Origin: Stagnihabitans tardus | GTDB taxonomy: Bacteria; Pseudomonadota; Alphaproteobacteria; Rhodobacterales; Rhodobacteraceae | DNA: 64,000 nt | Direction: 5' to 3' | NCBI RefSeq assembly: GCF_009925085.1 | Contig: NZ_JAABNR010000007.1 | Location: 1-64,000, forward strand | In this document: positions 52,445-62,778 of the stretch, piece after piece | Layout of the letters: each line of letters opens with the position of its first letter | Position numbering within the stretch: position 1 is the stretch's first letter | Position numbers and translations under genes: made by a program | Notes under the pieces: generated by a model | Databases searched by the model: none | Told to the model about the DNA's origin: nothing | The model's input: the letters and a program-made list of their open reading frames with translations, nothing else

Positions 52445-52951
52445 ATGACCGAGACGACCCATCCCCAGGCGCCGGAGACCCCTGGTGTGCCGCCGAAACC
52501 CAAGGCGCGGGCGCGGAACTGGCTGCTTTACGGCTCGCTGGCGCTGAACCTTCTGGTGGCGGGGCTGGCGGTGGGGGCCTGGGTCAAGGGGCCTCCGGGG
52601 ATGCGCGACGGGCGCGACCTGGGCTTTGGCATGTTCGACGAGGCCTTCCGGCCTGAGGATCGCATGGCGCTGCGCGATGCGGTGCGGGCGCGGGCCGGGG
52701 ATCTGAGGGCGGCGCGCGGGCAGATGGCGGGGGATCTCGCGGCGGTGGCAGCGGCCTTGCGGGCCGAGCCCTTCGACGCGACCGCGCTGAAGGCCGCGCT
52801 TGCGACGCAGCAAGAGCACCTGACGGCGCGGCTGCGCATCGGCTCGGAGGTGATCGGCGACTACCTCGCAGGCCTGAGCCCCAAGGACCGCGCCGCCTTT
52901 GCCGAAAGGCTTGAGGCGCGGGCCAAGCGCGGGGGCCAGGGGAAGGACTGA
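52445..52951 (+). CDS. Periplasmic heavy-metal sensor-like protein (Spy/CnrX type)
   Basis: A 168-aa protein with a basic N-terminus, a transmembrane segment (WLLYGSLALNLLVAGLAVGAW) and a helical periplasmic domain with FRPEDRMALRDAVRARAGDL, RAARGQMAGDLAAVAAALR and KAALATQQEHLTARLRIGSE. Such a helical hairpin is seen in CnrX/ZraP/Spy-type proteins called periplasmic heavy metal sensor. It follows the small membrane protein by one base, so the four genes from the EF-hand form a plausible signalling unit. Confidence 0.8.
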   Translation: MTETTHPQAPETPGVPPKPKARARNWLLYGSLALNLLVAGLAVGAWVKGPPGMRDGRDLGFGMFDEAFRPEDRMALRDAVRARAGDLRAARGQMAGDLAAVAAALRAEPFDATALKAALATQQEHLTARLRIGSEVIGDYLAGLSPKDRAAFAERLEARAKRGGQGKD

Positions 52952-55240: not shown

Positions 55241-55546
55241 ATGAAAAACCCCGGAAAACCCCCGGTTTATGGGCGGGAAGCCGCCGAAACCCTGGGCGCG
55301 CAGGCGTTGGAGTGGCTGGCGGGGGATCCCGAAAGGTTAACGGGCTTCCTGGGCGCCAGCGGTCTCTCCCCGCGCGAGCTGATGACGCGGGCCTCGGACC
55401 CCGCGATCCTGGGTGCCATTCTCGACCACCTGATGACCTCGGATGACTTGGTCATGGCCTTTTGCGATGCGATGGGGTTGAGTTACCTCGCCCCGCAAGC
55501 GGCGCGGGCGGTCTTGCCGGGAGGGGAAACATGGCACTGGACGTGA
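55241..55546 (+). CDS. DUF3572 family protein
   Basis: A 101-aa helical protein with REAAETLGAQALEWLAGDPE, LTGFLGASGLSPRELMTRAS and VMAFCDAMGLSYLAPQAA, matching DUF3572. The gene is beside pleD in other alphaproteobacteria too. Function unknown. GAGGTG precedes the ATG at 55241. It overlaps the next gene by 16 bases. Confidence 0.87.
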   Translation: MKNPGKPPVYGREAAETLGAQALEWLAGDPERLTGFLGASGLSPRELMTRASDPAILGAILDHLMTSDDLVMAFCDAMGLSYLAPQAARAVLPGGETWHWT

Positions 55547-56220
55547 TCAGGGCGGTTCTCTTCGACAAGGACGGCACGCTGTTTGACTTCCGCCAAAGCT
55601 GGGGCGGCTGGACGAAATCGATGCTCGACCGGCTGGCGCCCGTGACCACGGGCCCCCTGGCCCAGGCCCTGGGCTTCGACCCGCAAGCCATGGATTTCGA
55701 ACCGGATTCGGTCGTCATCGCCTCGACCATGGAAGAGATCGCCACGGTGATCGCCGCCCATGTGACGCTGCCCTATCCCCAGGTCGTGGCGCTGATGGAG
55801 GAGGTGGGCAAGGCCGCGCCCATGGTGCCGGCGGTCGATCTGCCCTTGGTCCTGGGCGAGCTGCGCGCGCGCGGCCTGCGGCTGGGGCTCGCCACCAACG
55901 ACACCGAGGCGCCGGCCCGGGCGCATCTGGCGGGGGCGGGGGTGCTCGACCTCTTCGACCTCGTCCTCGGCTGCGATTCGGGCCATGGCGGCAAGCCCGC
56001 GCCGGGTCAGCTCCTGGCCTTTGCCGAGGCCATGGGCCTGCCCCCCGGCCAGATCGCCATGGTGGGCGACAGTCTGCATGACCTCGAGGCCGCGCGGCGG
56101 GCGGGCATGGTCCCCGTGGGCGTCCTGACCGGCCCCGCCCCGCGCGAAAAGCTCTCCCCCCATGCCGAAGTGGTGCTGGACACCATCGCGGGCCTTGGCG
56201 CCTGGCTGGACGCCAGATGA
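55531..56220 (+). CDS. HAD-family hydrolase (phosphoglycolate phosphatase-like)
   Basis: A 229-aa haloacid-dehalogenase phosphatase with motif I LFDKDGTLFDF (D12, D14), motif II in LRLGLATNDTEA, the lysine in HGGKPAPGQLL and motif IV in MVGDSLHDLEAARRAG. The alpha-helical cap between 20 and 95 is of the C1 type, as in phosphoglycolate phosphatase. Substrate undetermined. The ATG at 55531 follows GGGAGGGG. It is coupled to the next gene by ATGA. Confidence 0.9.
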   Translation: MALDVIRAVLFDKDGTLFDFRQSWGGWTKSMLDRLAPVTTGPLAQALGFDPQAMDFEPDSVVIASTMEEIATVIAAHVTLPYPQVVALMEEVGKAAPMVPAVDLPLVLGELRARGLRLGLATNDTEAPARAHLAGAGVLDLFDLVLGCDSGHGGKPAPGQLLAFAEAMGLPPGQIAMVGDSLHDLEAARRAGMVPVGVLTGPAPREKLSPHAEVVLDTIAGLGAWLDAR

Positions 56221-57053: not shown

Positions 57054-57168
57054 GGCCGGGCGCATCGCAAAAACGACGATTCCTTGTCGGTAACGGAGTA
57101 AGCGCGGCGCGCGCCTTTGGGTCATCTTGCCCCAACGCCGGATTGGCGGAGTGAACGGAGGGTTGGGC

Positions 57169-58725
57169 ATGACCGAAGAGGCCACCAAGCGGCGTCGCGC
57201 CGGGGGCAGGGCGGGCAACAAAGAGCGCGCGGGTTCTGCGGCCATCGACCAGATGCCCTGGCGTCTGCCCGTGAACCCCGACCGCCCGACAGAGCCCCTG
57301 GACGAGGACGGCGTCCAGGCCGTCCACCGCGCCACGATGCGCATCCTGCGCGACATCGGCATCGAATTCCTCAACCCCGAGGCGCTGGAGATCATGCGCC
57401 AGGCCGGCTGCAAGATCACGGGAACCAATGTCCGCATGGACGAGGATTTCGTCATGGAGATGCTGGCGCGTGCGCCCGAGACCTTCACCATGACGCCGCG
57501 CAACCCCGAGCGCGAGCTGATCATGGGCGGCAAGTACATGCTCTTCGGGAACGTGTCCTCTCCGCCCAATTCCTGGGACCTGGAGCGCGGCAAGCGCCCC
57601 GGCACGATGGAATCCTTCCGCGAATTCATCAAGTTGACGCAGTATTTCAATTGCATCCACTTTGCCGGCGGCTATCCGGTGGAGCCCATCGACATCCACC
57701 CCTCGGTCCGTCACCTCGATTGCCTCTATGAGAAGCTGACCCTGACGGACAAGGTCGTCCATGCCTACAGCTTGGGTGCCGAGCGGGTGGAAGACGTGAT
57801 GGAGATGGTCAAGATCGCGGGGGGCCTCTCGGAAGAGGAATTCCAGGCGCGGCCCCGGATGTATACCAACATCAACTCGGTCTCGCCCCTGAAGCATGAC
57901 TTCCCGATGCTGGACGGCGCCATGCGGCTCGCCCGGCGCGGGCAGCCCGTGGTGGTGACGCCCTTCACCCTGGCCGGCGCCATGGCCCCGGTCACGCTCT
58001 CGGGCGCCGTCGCCCTGTCTCTGGCCGAGGCGCTGGCCGCGATTGCGCTGTTGCAATACATCGCCCCGGGCTGCCCGGTGGCGATCGGCACCTTCACCTC
58101 CAATGTCGACATGAAGTCCGGCGCCCCCGCCTTCGGCACGCCGGAATACATGCGCGCCACCCAGATGACCGGCCAGCTGGTCCGCCATTACAAGCTGCCC
58201 ATGCGCTCCTCCGGCGTCTGCGCGGCCAATGTGCCGGACGGCCAGGCCATGTGGGAGACCTCGAACTCCCTCTGGGCCGCCGTCCAAAGCCGCACGAACA
58301 TGGTCTATCACGCGGCCGGCTGGCTCGAGGGCGGGCTCATCGCAAGCCCTGAGAAATTCGTCATGGACTGCGAGGTCCTGCAGATGATCCAGCGCTATTT
58401 CGAAGAGGCGACCTTCGCCACGACGGAAGAGGACCTGGCTTTCGATGCCATCAAGGAGGTCGGCCCCTCGGGTCACTATTTCGGCGTGGCCCATACCCAG
58501 GCGCGCTACCAGACCGCCTTTTACGCCCCCATCGTGTCGGATTGGCGTAATTACGAGGCCTGGAACCTGGACGGCGCGCAATGGACGGCCGAGCGGGCCC
58601 ACAAGATCTACAAGGCGATCATCGCCGAATTCGAGGCCCCGGCGATGAACGGCGACCACCAGGAAGAGCTGAAACGCTTCGTGGCCAAGCGCAAGCAAGA
58701 GGGCGGGGCGCCGACCGACTTCTGA
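57169..58725 (+). CDS. Trimethylamine methyltransferase (MttB) superfamily protein, non-pyrrolysine
   Basis: A 518-aa TIM-barrel protein. It starts TEEATKRRRAGGRAGNKERA and has the MttB family stretches RILRDIGIEFLNPEALEIMR, GGKYMLFGNVSSPPNSWDL, MAPVTLSGAVALSLAEALA, and YHAAGWLEGGLIASPEKF. The frame has no in-frame TAG read-through, so it is of the non-pyrrolysine type, some of which demethylate glycine betaine or other quaternary amines to a corrinoid protein. No corrinoid protein or activating gene is adjacent. GGAGG precedes the ATG at 57169. Confidence 0.87.
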   Translation: MTEEATKRRRAGGRAGNKERAGSAAIDQMPWRLPVNPDRPTEPLDEDGVQAVHRATMRILRDIGIEFLNPEALEIMRQAGCKITGTNVRMDEDFVMEMLARAPETFTMTPRNPERELIMGGKYMLFGNVSSPPNSWDLERGKRPGTMESFREFIKLTQYFNCIHFAGGYPVEPIDIHPSVRHLDCLYEKLTLTDKVVHAYSLGAERVEDVMEMVKIAGGLSEEEFQARPRMYTNINSVSPLKHDFPMLDGAMRLARRGQPVVVTPFTLAGAMAPVTLSGAVALSLAEALAAIALLQYIAPGCPVAIGTFTSNVDMKSGAPAFGTPEYMRATQMTGQLVRHYKLPMRSSGVCAANVPDGQAMWETSNSLWAAVQSRTNMVYHAAGWLEGGLIASPEKFVMDCEVLQMIQRYFEEATFATTEEDLAFDAIKEVGPSGHYFGVAHTQARYQTAFYAPIVSDWRNYEAWNLDGAQWTAERAHKIYKAIIAEFEAPAMNGDHQEELKRFVAKRKQEGGAPTDF

Positions 58726-59291
58726 CGACCGACTTCTGAAGAGGGTTTGCGCCGCCTGACGGCGTCGCCCGAAGCGGGGGGCTGCCGCCCCCCGAGCCCC
58801 CTGCCCAAAGGGGAGCACGCTCCCCTTTGGAAACCCCGTGGATGTTTGAGTCAGTGTGAAAGGGGCCAAGGGGGGCTGCGCCTTGGGGGGCAGGGCTCTT
58901 GGAGCGTGTTTTGCCTCAGCCTTGGCGCGGCAAGTGGCTTTGCCCCGCATCCATGTCCCAAGGGGAGCCATCATGCCGGTTTTCTGAACCAGCCACGAAA
59001 CCACCCGGCAACGCCTTTGCAGACCCGCCTTGGGTATTTGGACCAAGTTGAAAGGGGCAAAGGGGCATTTTCGGGACGGGGTGGTGGATTTCGCTTCGGG
59101 TCATGACGCGCTTCGGAGGCCATTGGCGCGAAAGGGATTGAAGAACTTGTTTTCAGAAGGGGGTTTCACAAGGGGGCCAAGGCCCCCTTGTGCGAGGGGG
59201 GCTCGGGGGGGCGAGCAGCCCCCCCGATCTTCCCCCCCCGATCTTCCCAAAGCCAGCATCCTCGCCTAGGCTGCTCCCAAAGGAGCCCCCG
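58726..59291. other. Intergenic region with hairpin and two dispersed-element copies
   Basis: This 566-bp gap has no gene I can support. It holds a perfect 11-bp hairpin CCAAAGGGGAG/CTCCCCTTTGG at 58805-58830 with a CACG loop, then dispersed-element copies at 58831-58864 (CCCCGTGGATGTTTGAGTCA) and 59027-59055 (CCTTGGGTATTTGGACCAAG). G-runs follow at 59165-59240. Confidence 0.7.
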
Positions 59292-60938
59292 ATGCCGCAG
59301 CGCAGCCTCATGACCCTGATCGGCGCCAGCCTTGGCCTGTGCCTTTACGCCCTTGCCGAATGGACCGCGACCGAGGCCCTGCCGCCCCGCCTGGCCTTCG
59401 CGGCCTTGACCTTCACCCTGGGCCTCTCGCTGGGCCTCATGGTCCTGACCGGGCCCCTGGGCCTGCGCCGTGCCAGCCTGCGCGCGGGGGGCCTGGCGCT
59501 CATCCTGTCCGGGCTCCTCTCCCTCGCCGCCCTGCGCTTTGCCGCGCCCGAGGAGCTGTTTTCCTCCGCCCTGCCCACCGCCGCGCTGATCCTTTTGGTC
59601 ACCTTGCCCTGGCCCTTCCTGATCACCGCAACCTCGCCCGAGGGCTGGCGCGACTACCCCGGGCTTTTCCGCGAAAGCTGGTCGATCGTCGCCCGCGCGC
59701 TCCTGGCGTTTCTCTTCACCGGGCTTTTGTGGCTGACGCTTTACCTGTCGGACGAGATCCTGCATCTGGCCAAGTTCGAGGGCCTGCACTGGCTCCTCCA
59801 AAGCGACCCCGCGCCCTTTGTCATCACCGGAGCCGCGCTCGGCCTTGCCACCTCGGTGGTGGACGAGATCGCCCCCGCCCTCTCGCCCCGCCTCTTTCTG
59901 CGGCTTCTCAGGCTCTTGCTCCCCCTGGTCCTGGCGGTCATGGCGCTTTTCCTGGCCATCCTGCCCTTCCGCGGCCTGACCGGGCTTTTCGGCAATCTCT
60001 CGGCCGGGACGACGCTGATGCTCCTGGCGGGCTTGGCCGTGACGCTGGTCACCTCGGCGCTGGACGAAGAGGATGCCGAGGCCGCCCCCATGCGCGGGGC
60101 GACGCGGGCCTTGGCGGGGCTGGCCGTCGTGCCTGCGGGGCTCGCGGCCTGGGCCCTGGGGCAGAGGGTCGCCGATTACGGCTGGACGCCCGACCGGCTG
60201 ATGGCCGCCACGGTGACCGCCGTGCTTCTGGCCTATGGCCTTGCCTATCTCGCCGTCCTCGCGCGGCGCGACTGGATGGCGCGCATCCGCCAGGTCAACC
60301 TGGTCCTGGCCCTGGGACAGGTGGCCGTCGCCATCCTCTGGCTGACCCTCCTGAACCCCGAGGCCATCGCCTCGGCCTCGCAGTCCGCGCGGATCGAGGC
60401 GGGGCAGGGCGCGCCGGAAGACCTCGAGCGGCTTTCCGACTGGGGCCTGGCGGGGAAGGCGGCCCGCACCGCGCTCGAGGCCCGGGGCCTCGCGCCCCAG
60501 CCCGAGCCCGACCCGCGCCCGAAGCTGGCCGAGGTTCTGCCGCTGCGCCCCGACACGCCAGAGACAAGGGCGCTGCGCGACCGCATGCTGCCGTTCCTGT
60601 CCGATGACCAGGCACAGACGCTTCAGCGCCACTGCGCGCCGCCGAAAGGGGCCTGTGTCCTGGCCTTTGCCGATCTGCTGCCCGCCCTGCCGGGACCGGA
60701 GGCGATGCTTCTCACCGATGGCGACGGCTATGGCTCCCCCCTGGGGTTTTCCTTCGATTCTGGCACGGTCCAGGATCGCTATTTCACCCAGGACGGCACG
60801 CTTTACGATCCTGAGGCCAATGCGGCCCTGATCGCCGCGCTCCTGGCCCTGCCGCCCTCCGAAGGTCCGCCCATCGAGCCCATCGCCCGCAACCAACTGG
60901 CCCTGCCGGAAGCGAAGGGCCTGACGCTGAACCCCTGA
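59292..60938 (+). CDS. DUF4153 multi-pass membrane protein
   Basis: A 548-aa protein with about eleven hydrophobic segments in its first 400 residues (for example SLMTLIGASLGLCLYALAEW, LLAFLFTGLLWLTLYLSDEI) and a cytoplasmic or periplasmic C-terminal domain of 150 residues (QARIEAGQGAPEDLERLSDW and later GDGYGSPLGFSFDSGTVQDR). This matches DUF4153. Role unknown. AAAGGAG precedes the ATG at 59292. Confidence 0.85.
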   Translation: MPQRSLMTLIGASLGLCLYALAEWTATEALPPRLAFAALTFTLGLSLGLMVLTGPLGLRRASLRAGGLALILSGLLSLAALRFAAPEELFSSALPTAALILLVTLPWPFLITATSPEGWRDYPGLFRESWSIVARALLAFLFTGLLWLTLYLSDEILHLAKFEGLHWLLQSDPAPFVITGAALGLATSVVDEIAPALSPRLFLRLLRLLLPLVLAVMALFLAILPFRGLTGLFGNLSAGTTLMLLAGLAVTLVTSALDEEDAEAAPMRGATRALAGLAVVPAGLAAWALGQRVADYGWTPDRLMAATVTAVLLAYGLAYLAVLARRDWMARIRQVNLVLALGQVAVAILWLTLLNPEAIASASQSARIEAGQGAPEDLERLSDWGLAGKAARTALEARGLAPQPEPDPRPKLAEVLPLRPDTPETRALRDRMLPFLSDDQAQTLQRHCAPPKGACVLAFADLLPALPGPEAMLLTDGDGYGSPLGFSFDSGTVQDRYFTQDGTLYDPEANAALIAALLALPPSEGPPIEPIARNQLALPEAKGLTLNP

Positions 60939-61061: not shown

Positions 61062-61138
61062 GCAGCTGCCTGGATCCGGTCAGAGGTTTTCAGCGGTCCT
61101 TAACCTCCTGCCCCTAGTCTGCCTCAAACGAGGGCGCG

Positions 61139-61723
61139 ATGCTGGGCTTGATCAACCGATCTTTCCAATTCTTCCTGATCGACACCTGGGGGGTCGAGGC
61201 CTGGGAAACCGTGGCCGCCGAACTGGCTTTGCCCTTCGCCGGGTTTGAAGCCATGCTGACCTATGACGATGCGGCGCTCGACAAGCTGGTCGATGCCTCT
61301 TCGGCCCATCTGCACCGCCCGCGCGATTCACTGATGGAGGATCTGGGGACCTATCTCGTCGCCCATGAACGCCAGGCCACGGTCCGGCGGCTCTTGCGCT
61401 TTTCGGGGGCGAATTTCTGCGACTTCCTCGCCTCGATCGAAGAGATGCCCGATCGCGGCAGGCTCGTCCTGCCCGAGCTCGACCTGCCCTTCCTGGTCCT
61501 GACCGATCTCGGCGCCGGGGCCTTCCGGCTGACCTGCCACTCGCCGATCCGGGGGGCGGGCCATGTCATCATGGGGCTTTTGCGGGCGATGGCCGATGAC
61601 TACGGCGCGCTGGTCCTGCTGGACCATCTGGGGCAAGAGGGGGGCGCCGATGTCATCTCGATCCAGATCGCCGACCTCGAACACTATGCCGCGCGGCCCT
61701 TCAGCTTTGGGTTGACCGCATGA
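61139..61723 (+). CDS. H-NOX (HNOB)-like protein lacking the heme-ligand histidine
   Basis: A 194-aa protein that starts MLGLINRSFQFFLIDTWGVE, the typical H-NOX opening, and aligns throughout with heme nitric-oxide/oxygen-binding domains: LLRFSGANFCDFLASIEEMP, RLVLPELDLPFL and GHVIMGLLRAMADDY. But the proximal heme histidine is replaced (aligned residue P104, in EEMPDR where others have NLHAR), and the YxSxR heme-propionate motif reads C133-x-S135-x-I137. It probably cannot bind heme in the usual way. It is coupled by ATGA to an HNOBA-GGDEF cyclase, so it likely acts as partner or altered sensor. Confidence 0.82.
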   Translation: MLGLINRSFQFFLIDTWGVEAWETVAAELALPFAGFEAMLTYDDAALDKLVDASSAHLHRPRDSLMEDLGTYLVAHERQATVRRLLRFSGANFCDFLASIEEMPDRGRLVLPELDLPFLVLTDLGAGAFRLTCHSPIRGAGHVIMGLLRAMADDYGALVLLDHLGQEGGADVISIQIADLEHYAARPFSFGLTA

Positions 61724-62778
61724 ACAAGCCCCTGTCGCGCGCGATCCTGCCCCTGACGACCGAGGCCCTGGATCACCTCATGCCCTTGAACCTGCGGCTG
61801 GATTCGGGCGGGCGCATCATGGCGCTGGGCCCGACCCTGGCGCGTCTCTTGCCGCAACCCGTCGTGGGGCGTTCTTTCTTCACGCTTTTCGACCTGCGCC
61901 GCTCCTCCGCCCTGACCGGGGTCGAGGATCTCATGTCCCATTCCGGCCTGCGCCTGCGCCTGACGCTGCGGCCCGAATTCCGCAGCCCCGGCCTGCGCCC
62001 CATTCCCTTCCGCGGCATGGCCATTCCCCTGGCCGACCGCTCGGGCCTGGTGGTCAATCTCTCCTTCGGCCTGGGTGTGGTCGATGCCATCCGGCAATAT
62101 GGCCTGACCGACAATGATTTCGCCCCCACCGACCTGGCGCTGGAAATGATGTACCTGGTCGAGGCGAACACCGCCGCGATGGATGCCCTGCGCGGTTCGG
62201 CCATGCGGCTGCAGGGCGACAAGCAGATGGCCGAGGCGCAGGCCATGACCGATACGCTGACCGGCCTGCGCAACCGCCGCGCCCTCGCCCAGGCGCTGGA
62301 GCGGCTCTCGCGCGGGACGGCGCCCTTTGGCCTGATGCATATCGACCTCGACTTCTTCAAAGAGGTCAACGACACGATGGGCCATGCGGCGGGGGACCAT
62401 GTGCTGCGCCGCGTGGCCGAGCTTTTGATGCAAGAGACCCGGGCCGAGGATACGGTGGCCCGCGTCGGTGGCGACGAATTCGTTGCGGTCTTTCCTGATC
62501 TGGTCGATCCGGGCCGCCTGGATGCGATCGCCCGCCGGGTCATCGAAGTCCTCTCCCGCCCCATCCCTTTCGAGGGCAAGACCTGCCGCATCTCCGCCTC
62601 TATCGGCATCACGACCTCCACGGCCTATCATGTGACCGACATCACCCAGATGGAGCAGGACGCCGACGAGGCGCTTTACGCCTCCAAGCGCGCAGGCCGG
62701 GGCAGAGCGACCTTCCATCCCGGTGCAGCCCAGGCGGCTCAGCCCAGCGCGCCCGAACGGCGCAGTCCGCAGGGTTAA
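61720..62778 (+). CDS. Diguanylate cyclase with N-terminal HNOBA-like domain
   Basis: A 352-aa protein. Residues 20-150 resemble the heme-NO-binding-associated (HNOBA) domain (MPLNLRLDSGGRIMALGPTL, VVGRSFFTLFDLRRSSALTG, LSFGLGVVDAIRQYGLTDND); about 155-185 a coiled coil linker; then a GGDEF domain with LTGLRNRRALAQALERL, MHIDLDFFKEVNDTMGHAAG, and VARVGGDEFVAVFPD with the RAED inhibitory site. It is complete and should make cyclic di-GMP. The start is in the H-NOX-like stop (ATGA). Some H-NOX/cyclase pairs respond to NO and regulate biofilm. Confidence 0.88.
   Translation: MNKPLSRAILPLTTEALDHLMPLNLRLDSGGRIMALGPTLARLLPQPVVGRSFFTLFDLRRSSALTGVEDLMSHSGLRLRLTLRPEFRSPGLRPIPFRGMAIPLADRSGLVVNLSFGLGVVDAIRQYGLTDNDFAPTDLALEMMYLVEANTAAMDALRGSAMRLQGDKQMAEAQAMTDTLTGLRNRRALAQALERLSRGTAPFGLMHIDLDFFKEVNDTMGHAAGDHVLRRVAELLMQETRAEDTVARVGGDEFVAVFPDLVDPGRLDAIARRVIEVLSRPIPFEGKTCRISASIGITTSTAYHVTDITQMEQDADEALYASKRAGRGRATFHPGAAQAAQPSAPERRSPQG

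What the first reader, a model, noticed from the sequence alone, without database searches (positions are those of the whole stretch)
61139..62778. H-NOX-like protein without heme ligand coupled to an HNOBA diguanylate cyclase
The whole H-NOX fold seems present, but the histidine that binds heme is Pro104 and the YxSxR motif is degenerate, while the partner cyclase has a full active site and inhibitory site. The pair may be a c-di-GMP switch that senses something else than NO by an H-NOX fold, or a constitutive inhibitor. ATGA coupling argues for a stable complex.
Basis: partly seen in the sequence, partly recalled or inferred. Interest (0 to 1): 0.75.

Follow-up and report, generated by a model that had tools for sequence, protein, structure and literature searches.

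The report
Heme-less H-NOX paired with diguanylate cyclase
A bacterial relative of the nitric-oxide sensor domain has lost the histidine that holds heme but is still coupled to a c-di-GMP-making enzyme; it belongs to a large, already described group whose real signal is still unknown.

Summary
The 194-residue protein at 61139-61723 has the H-NOX fold (TM 0.81 to Nostoc H-NOX), but Pro104 stands where the heme histidine should be and YxSxR reads CHSPI. It overlaps by ATGA a diguanylate cyclase with intact GGDEF and RxxD.

It is not a one-off: of 197 distinct class members 133 have Pro and 25 His, none keeps YxSxR, and 209 of 210 relatives have the cyclase next door, the miss being at a contig end. 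This is the published 'Group 5' H-NOX cluster (PMC8738867). Mutants of a Pro104 member in Paracoccus suggest that it inhibits its cyclase (PMC5588039).

Added here: several early branches and Dinoroseobacter shibae, whose H-NOX is reported to act when NO-bound, keep His; the ligand column drifts through 14 residues while a class-specific set (D68, R83, R84, R87, R149, D154, Y155, a C-terminal tail) is near-invariant.

Best reading (0.45): a heme-free, probably inhibitory subunit that no longer senses NO itself. No biochemistry was possible. New member of a known kind.

The parts
61139..61723 (+). H-NOX-like protein without heme ligand (194 aa)
   Evidence: HNOB E=2.5e-20; model pLDDT 88.6, TM 0.81 to 2o09_A
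61448..61450 (+). codon of Pro104, at the place of the heme-ligating histidine
   Evidence: alignments; column counts
61535..61549 (+). C133-H-S-P-I137, at the place of YxSxR
   Evidence: 0 of 197 class rows keep YxSxR
61694..61708 (+). class-specific C-terminal tail R186-P-F188-S-F190
   Evidence: Phe at 188 in 195 of 197 rows, Leu at 190 in 193 of 197 (Phe in the window), gap in 6 of 6 sGC-like outgroup rows; mean pLDDT 49 (residues 181-190) and 47 (191-194)
61720..61723 (+). ATGA start/stop overlap
   Evidence: 149 of 209 relatives have a 4-base overlap
61720..62778 (+). partner diguanylate cyclase: PAS/HNOBA-like domain, helix, GGDEF
   Evidence: GGDEF E=1.2e-39; model pLDDT 93.8
61750..61965 (+). 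HNOBA-like region of the cyclase (residues 11-82)
   Evidence: E=0.011, 15.7 bits, under the cut-off; 50 of 61 aligned cyclases at E<=0.01
62440..62451 (+). RxxD inhibitory site (RAED)
   Evidence: RxxD in 203 of 207 relatives with GGDEF
62467..62481 (+). GGDEF active site
   Evidence: GGDEF in 207 of 209 relatives, the two misses being frames cut by contig ends
61089..61103 (+). CtrA-like site TTCA-N7-TTAA upstream of the pair
   Evidence: one mismatch to TTAA-N7-TTAA (consensus recalled); 46 of 208 relatives have a site with at most 1 mismatch (6.2 in shuffles), but an exact site only 1 of 208 (0.4 in shuffles)

Best explanation
The protein is a Group 5 H-NOX: an H-NOX fold that no longer carries ligated heme and acts as a dedicated regulatory subunit of the diguanylate cyclase encoded with it, most likely an inhibitor. 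Shown: predicted fold, loss of the ligand and of YxSxR, an almost universal gene pair, purifying selection, a near-invariant class-specific residue set. Inferred: it contacts the PAS/HNOBA domain and the coiled coil through helix alphaF and the class-specific residues, as the sGC beta H-NOX does. In heme-binding H-NOX proteins NO is thought to work by breaking the iron-histidine bond that tethers alphaF. With no tether the fold may stay in the released, NO-bound-like, partner-inhibiting state, so that output would depend on the amount of protein (CtrA-linked transcription) or on an unknown ligand instead of NO.
For: Fold and alignment. Ligand column in 197 distinct rows: P 133, H 25, twelve other residues 39. 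YxSxR in 0 of 197 against 8 of 8 outgroup rows; position 73, Trp in 6 of 6 sGC-like outgroup rows, is Leu in 192 of 197. Cyclase downstream in 209 of 210 rows: 28 of 28 with His, 181 of 182 without. The sGC beta-Asp102 equivalent is acidic in 25 of 25 His rows and 165 of 172 others (role in sGC from PMC8196705). dN/dS 0.13-0.26 for the H-NOX gene against 0.17-0.20 for the cyclase, three sequences. P. [quoted passage not shown] its protein has Pro104. [quoted passage not shown]
Against: No direct test of heme, complex or enzyme activity. The sign of regulation rests on one relative at 42% identity over residues 1-161, whose c-di-GMP could not be measured (PMC12582929) and whose authors propose that NO stimulates the inhibition. 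The one member with biochemical assays, D. shibae, is NO-responsive, but it keeps His. A released or heme-free H-NOX is not always inhibitory: the NO form of Caulobacter H-NOX does not inhibit its kinase (PMC12329717, abstract), and heme-free V. cholerae H-NOX inhibits when oxidised (PMC7108781, passages). The beta-Asp106 equivalent is acidic less often without His (129 of 172 against 23 of 25).
Confidence: 0.45

Rival explanations
1. It senses some other small molecule in the emptied pocket (another tetrapyrrole, a hydrophobic metabolite), and this ligand switches the cyclase.
For: The pocket is not blocked by an N-terminal extension as in sGC alpha: the first helix begins at residue 3. The fold is conserved. 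The authors of Group 5 ask what it senses (PMC8738867).
Against: No candidate ligand. Position 104 takes 14 residues. No cofactor gene was recognised among eight hand-picked ORFs at 45-57 kb, five of which had no Pfam match at all.
Confidence: 0.22
2. It still binds heme through another residue, or without a protein ligand, and senses NO as the D. shibae protein does.
For: D. shibae H-NOX is listed with heme and NO inhibition of Dgc1 (PMC8846402), and the window protein is in the same class with the same kind of partner.
Against: D. shibae keeps His104, so it does not speak for Pro104 members. Of 16 His, Cys, Met, Tyr or Lys column states common in His-less rows, only Met39 (p=0.026), Tyr72 (p=0.018) and Cys133 (p=0.049) are enriched there, all uncorrected. 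YxSxR is lost in 197 of 197 rows. The window genome has no NirK or Cytochrom_D1 match, which speaks only to NO made by these enzymes.
Confidence: 0.2
3. Redox sensing by a cysteine-zinc site, as in Vibrio cholerae or Caulobacter H-NOX.
For: H-NOX proteins with such a site are known (PMC7108781, PMC12329717).
Against: Only two cysteines, C94 and C133. Group 5 lacks conserved Cys (PMC8738867).
Confidence: 0.03
4. A vestigial protein with no role, carried along with the cyclase gene.
For: The ligand column drifts; 5 of 16 genomes of the genus have no match, one of them 86% complete.
Against: dN/dS 0.13-0.26, like the cyclase; 11 invariant columns in 78 sequences; a mutant phenotype in P. denitrificans.
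Confidence: 0.05

Closest known systems
Group 5 H-NOX cluster (Lee-Lopez and Yukl 2022, PMC8738867; section 10 and passages seen, figures not held)
   Same: Pro in place of the proximal His, no conserved Cys, Gly hinges kept (G70 and G146 in 197 of 197; that these are the hinges is my reading of the alignment), GGDEF neighbour. MTTB, HAD and metal-resistance genes are named in the neighbourhood legend, and all three occur in this window
   Different: Nothing that was tested; the window is one more member. Which group each neighbour belongs to cannot be told from the legend
Paracoccus denitrificans hnoX/dgcA (Pden_3719/3720; PMC5588039)
   Same: Overlapping genes, Pro104, GGDEF partner
   Different: 42% identity over residues 1-161; it is a denitrifier with nirS, while the window genome has no NirK or Cytochrom_D1 match
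Dinoroseobacter shibae H-NOX/Dgc1 (Bedrunka 2018, not held; seen through passages of PMC8846402 and PMC7232146)
   Same: Same class, same kind of cyclase partner
   Different: Keeps His104 and is reported as heme/NO-responsive
sGC alpha subunit 'pseudo-H-NOX' (PMC8196705, passages)
   Same: H-NOX fold without heme; the human alpha lacks the His, the moth alpha lacks YxSxR
   Different: There an N-terminal extension fills the pocket and the domain is fused to a guanylate cyclase subunit; here a separate protein without extension

Membership tests
H-NOX / HNOB domain (Pfam PF07700) | Profile match above cut-off | tested here: met
   73.4 bits, cut-off 25.5
H-NOX / HNOB domain (Pfam PF07700) | H-NOX fold | tested here: met
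   predicted model, pLDDT 88.6, TM 0.81/0.86 to 2o09_A
Heme-binding NO-sensing H-NOX | Proximal His | tested here: not met
   P104
Heme-binding NO-sensing H-NOX | YxSxR | tested here: not met
   CHSPI; 0 of 197 in the class
Heme-binding NO-sensing H-NOX | Bound heme, NO response | not testable with these tools
   needs protein
Group 5 H-NOX (PMC8738867) | Mostly Pro at the ligand site, few His | tested here: met
   window P; class P 133, H 25 of 197. His is 13% here against under 10% in the paper; my sampling favours His (full report, paragraph 3)
Group 5 H-NOX (PMC8738867) | No conserved Cys, Gly hinges kept | tested here: met
   window has C94 and C133 only; Cys at 133 in 117 of 197; G70 and G146 in 197 of 197
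Group 5 H-NOX (PMC8738867) | Position in the authors' similarity network | not tested
   network not held; the P. denitrificans protein falls in the same class as the window's
HNOBA (Pfam PF07701) in the cyclase | Profile match above cut-off | tested here: inconclusive
   own match 15.7 bits against 23.4; 50 of 61 aligned cyclases at E<=0.01; the model's matches include PAS-GGDEF-EAL PA0861 (rank 1, TM 0.42) and sGC beta 8hbe_B (rank 47, TM 0.34), with large rmsd over whole chains
Active diguanylate cyclase with product inhibition | GGDEF and RxxD | tested here: met
   GGDEF 250-254, RAED 241-244; activity itself not testable
sGC alpha-type pseudo-H-NOX | N-terminal extension in the heme pocket | tested here: not met
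   first helix begins at residue 3

The most novel reading that the evidence does not exclude
A gas sensor turned into a fixed subunit: in most of one bacterial family the NO sensor lost its ligand many times and became a permanently 'NO-bound-like' inhibitor of its cyclase, docked by a class-specific surface and a conserved C-terminal F-x-L tail and tuned by CtrA-linked dosage or an unknown ligand, while a few lineages such as D. shibae kept the gas-sensing form.
Probability: 0.25. Interest if true: 0.65.

Novelty: new member of a known kind. Interest (0 to 1): 0.35.

Why it matters
Published work on Group 5 asks how H-NOX proteins without the heme histidine sense anything (PMC8738867). The results here make that testable: the same gene pair exists with His (D. 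shibae) and without (most relatives), so swaps at one residue can show whether the loss locks an inhibitory state. They also warn against reading NO sensing into every 'heme NO-binding protein' annotation in this family: 182 of 210 rows of the class, duplicates included, lack the histidine.

Tried and rejected
Replacement ligand: no His, Cys, Met, Tyr or Lys column clearly replaces His104. Of 16 column/residue pairs present in at least 30% of His-less rows, enriched there at uncorrected p<0.05 were Met39 (0.026), Tyr72 (0.018) and Cys133 (0.049); Cys11 goes the other way (0.016). Trp135 goes with His104 (14 of 25 against 19 of 172) but this could not be shown to be independent of the tree (2 usable pairs). 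H76 and H134 as ligands: no support.

Zinc/cysteine redox site: rejected, only C94 and C133. Link of His104 to denitrification: NirK over cut-off, or a Cytochrom_D1 match below 1e-60, in 9 of 14 His genomes and 25 of 66 others (sorted by hand), p=0.08, not controlled for kinship, 80 of 130 genomes searched: not claimed. Corrinoid idea from the MTTB neighbour: no corrinoid-binding family among eight hand-picked ORFs, five of them without any match; dropped. Gain or loss of His: Fitch 16 changes (200 shuffles: mean 24.9, lowest 21), 44 losses if it is never regained; quick tree, modest supports, so His as ancestral is likely, not proven. Pocket volume and complex: not computed; no coordinate file was in the box and the tool folds single chains.

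Rows dropped before the class counts: L001, L002 (the window itself), L012, L013 (two pieces in one genome, at contig ends), L047 (frame with an internal stop, pieces kept apart). Identical cores were dropped before the tree (211 to 197 rows).

Full report
1. What is there. Two genes overlap by ATGA: 61139-61723 (194 aa) and 61720-62778 (352 aa), both on the + strand. The first is an H-NOX-like protein (HNOB 73.4 bits, cut-off 25.5). In alignments with human sGC beta1 and Nostoc Alr2278 the heme histidine falls on Pro104, and YxSxR on C133-H-S-P-I137. The second is a diguanylate cyclase with GGDEF (residues 250-254) and RxxD (241-244). Its own HNOBA match is below the cut-off (15.7 against 23.4 bits), but 50 of 61 aligned partner cyclases match HNOBA at E<=0.01.

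2. Fold. The AlphaFold2 model of the H-NOX-like protein (78 sequences, mean pLDDT 88.6) matches Nostoc H-NOX 2o09_A best (E 1.5e-12, TM 0.81 by query length). Mean pLDDT is 49 for residues 181-190 and 47 for 191-194. The cyclase model (pLDDT 93.8, pTM 0.77) matches PAS-GGDEF-EAL protein PA0861 first and, at rank 47, sGC beta (8hbe_B, E 1.4e-13); TM over whole chains is low (0.42 and 0.34) with large rmsd, so this speaks for the kinds of domain and not for their arrangement. The second aligner was not available.

3. Not a one-off. PF07700 was sought in 295 genomes of the family: 221 match. The list of that call ended near E 1.9e-20; weaker matches were not shown and not fetched (the window's own is 4.7e-20). 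Beside the loci it gave, 119 further regions were fetched. Three classes appear: canonical proteins (27 rows, His in all but L041, which has Gln), two sGC-like rows with His (L014, L015; L015 is also one of the 27), and the window's class. The class then has 211 rows: P 141, H 28, S 9, R 6, A 6, N 4, Q 4, E 3, K 3, T 2, G 2, D, Y and V 1 each; without duplicates 197 rows, P 133 and H 25. Both the cut list and the His-bearing query favour His rows, so 13% His is probably too high. In 385 genomes of the class Alphaproteobacteria 18 have HNOB, five of them of the window's family; in 12 of the 13 proteins from other families the ligand region was printed, and by eye I see His in each of the 12.

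4. Gene pair. Of 210 rows (duplicates included) 209 have the cyclase downstream on the same strand; the miss, L050, has 139 bases of contig left. A 4-base start/stop overlap is present in 149 of 209 (ATGA 123, GTGA 22, TTGA 4); GGDEF in 207 of 209, the two misses being frames cut by contig ends; RxxD in 203 of 207.

5. What changed and what did not. YxSxR is kept in 0 of 197 class rows and 8 of 8 outgroup rows. Position 73 is Trp in 6 of 6 sGC-like outgroup rows and Leu in 192 of 197 class rows; that this Trp lines the distal heme pocket is recalled. Kept in at least 95% of class rows and in at most 1 of 6 sGC-like outgroup rows: F12, E37, D68, L73, R83, R84, R87, R149, A152, D154, Y155, L158, F188, L190 (Phe in the window). 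The acidic residue at the sGC beta-Asp102 equivalent is kept (25 of 25 with His, 165 of 172 without), that at beta-Asp106 less so (23 of 25, 129 of 172); in sGC these contact the PAS domain (PMC8196705, section 14). Among the window and its two nearest relatives dN/dS is 0.13-0.26 for the H-NOX gene and 0.17-0.20 for the cyclase. So the ligand column is free while something else is held fixed.

6. History. On a quick tree (197 class rows, 8 outgroup rows; column 104 left out) His rows are gathered (16 changes; 200 shuffles: mean 24.9, lowest 21), and several of the earliest branches hold them: L168/L169, then L052 beside a row with Asn, then L040/L093/L109 among eight rows with other residues, then L042/L174 beside rows with Lys and Pro; node supports on that path are 67-92. 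His is probably ancestral and lost many times; regain cannot be excluded.

7. The characterised relatives. G050 is D. shibae: 3000 of 3000 bases of a pDSHI01 piece match at 100%. Its protein, L120, has His104, while a MAG labelled Dinoroseobacter sp., L164, has Arg. D. shibae H-NOX is listed as a heme/NO sensor that inhibits Dgc1 (PMC8846402, passages; PMC7232146, passages; the original, Bedrunka 2018, is not held). P. denitrificans H-NOX, L163, has Pro104. Kumar and Spiro (PMC5588039, sections 9 and 10 and passages) say that it lacks the axial His like that of R. [quoted passage not shown] c-di-GMP could not be measured there (PMC12582929, passages).

8. Already in print. Lee-Lopez and Yukl (PMC8738867, section 10 and passages) describe a very large Group 5 seeded by the P. 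denitrificans protein: fewer than 10% have the proximal His, most have Pro, no conserved Cys, Gly hinges kept, and they ask how such proteins sense anything. The window protein fits. In the listings of the ten paper searches that ran (one search found nothing) and the passages that I opened I saw no report of the YxSxR loss across the group, the His-keeping early branches, the D. shibae contrast or the tail; several key papers are not held, so this is no proof of absence.

9. Mechanism. [quoted passage not shown] in sGC the alphaF helix then shifts (PMC8196705). A protein with no tether may sit in the released state. Together with the P. denitrificans phenotypes this makes a constitutive inhibitory subunit the likeliest reading (0.45), with an unknown ligand (0.22) and residual heme (0.2) as rivals. 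Against a simple rule 'released means inhibitory': the NO form of Caulobacter H-NOX does not inhibit its kinase, and heme-free V. cholerae H-NOX inhibits when oxidised (PMC7108781, passages); both partners are kinases, not cyclases. The window genome has no NirK or Cytochrom_D1 match, which removes one source of NO but says nothing about NO from outside. Whether the two proteins bind each other is inferred, not shown.

10. Surroundings. Upstream lie an MTTB-family methyltransferase and a DUF4153 protein on the same strand. Among the 80 named loci one or both are found in 60 (MTTB 46, DUF4153 28), and 73 of 74 such frames lie upstream on the same strand. A CtrA-like TTCA-N7-TTAA lies at 61089-61103; 46 of 208 relatives have a site with at most one mismatch upstream, against 6.2 in shuffles that keep base composition only, but an exact site occurs in 1 of 208 (0.4 in shuffles). 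In P. inhibens and D. shibae one dgc gene with the associated hnox is reported as down in CtrA phosphorelay mutants (PMC11974857, passages).

Noticed in passing
window 57127-58725 and 59190-60938: MTTB-family methyltransferase and DUF4153 protein upstream on the same strand; one or both lie near the pair in 60 of 80 named loci. The reason for the linkage is unknown.
   Followed up: partly
window 61089-61103: CtrA-like TTCA-N7-TTAA upstream of the pair; sites with at most one mismatch in 46 of 208 relatives against 6.2 shuffled, exact sites in 1 of 208.
   Followed up: partly
window 61694-61708: Conserved C-terminal F-x-L tail, low model confidence, absent from outgroup rows: a possible docking tail or pocket plug.
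   Followed up: partly
window 52445-52951 and 55531-56220: Metal_resist and HAD-hydrolase genes nearby; such families are named in the published H-NOX neighbourhood legend.
   Followed up: no
L016-L039: A minority of family genomes also carry a canonical H-NOX with His and YxSxR, so both kinds can coexist.
   Followed up: no
L041: A canonical-class H-NOX with Gln at the ligand place but Y-H-S-D-R kept: a separate ligand loss.
   Followed up: no
L164:3001-3582: A MAG labelled Dinoroseobacter sp. has Arg at position 104 while D. shibae (L120) has His.
   Followed up: no
L047: One relative has an internal TAA in the H-NOX frame; described only.
   Followed up: no
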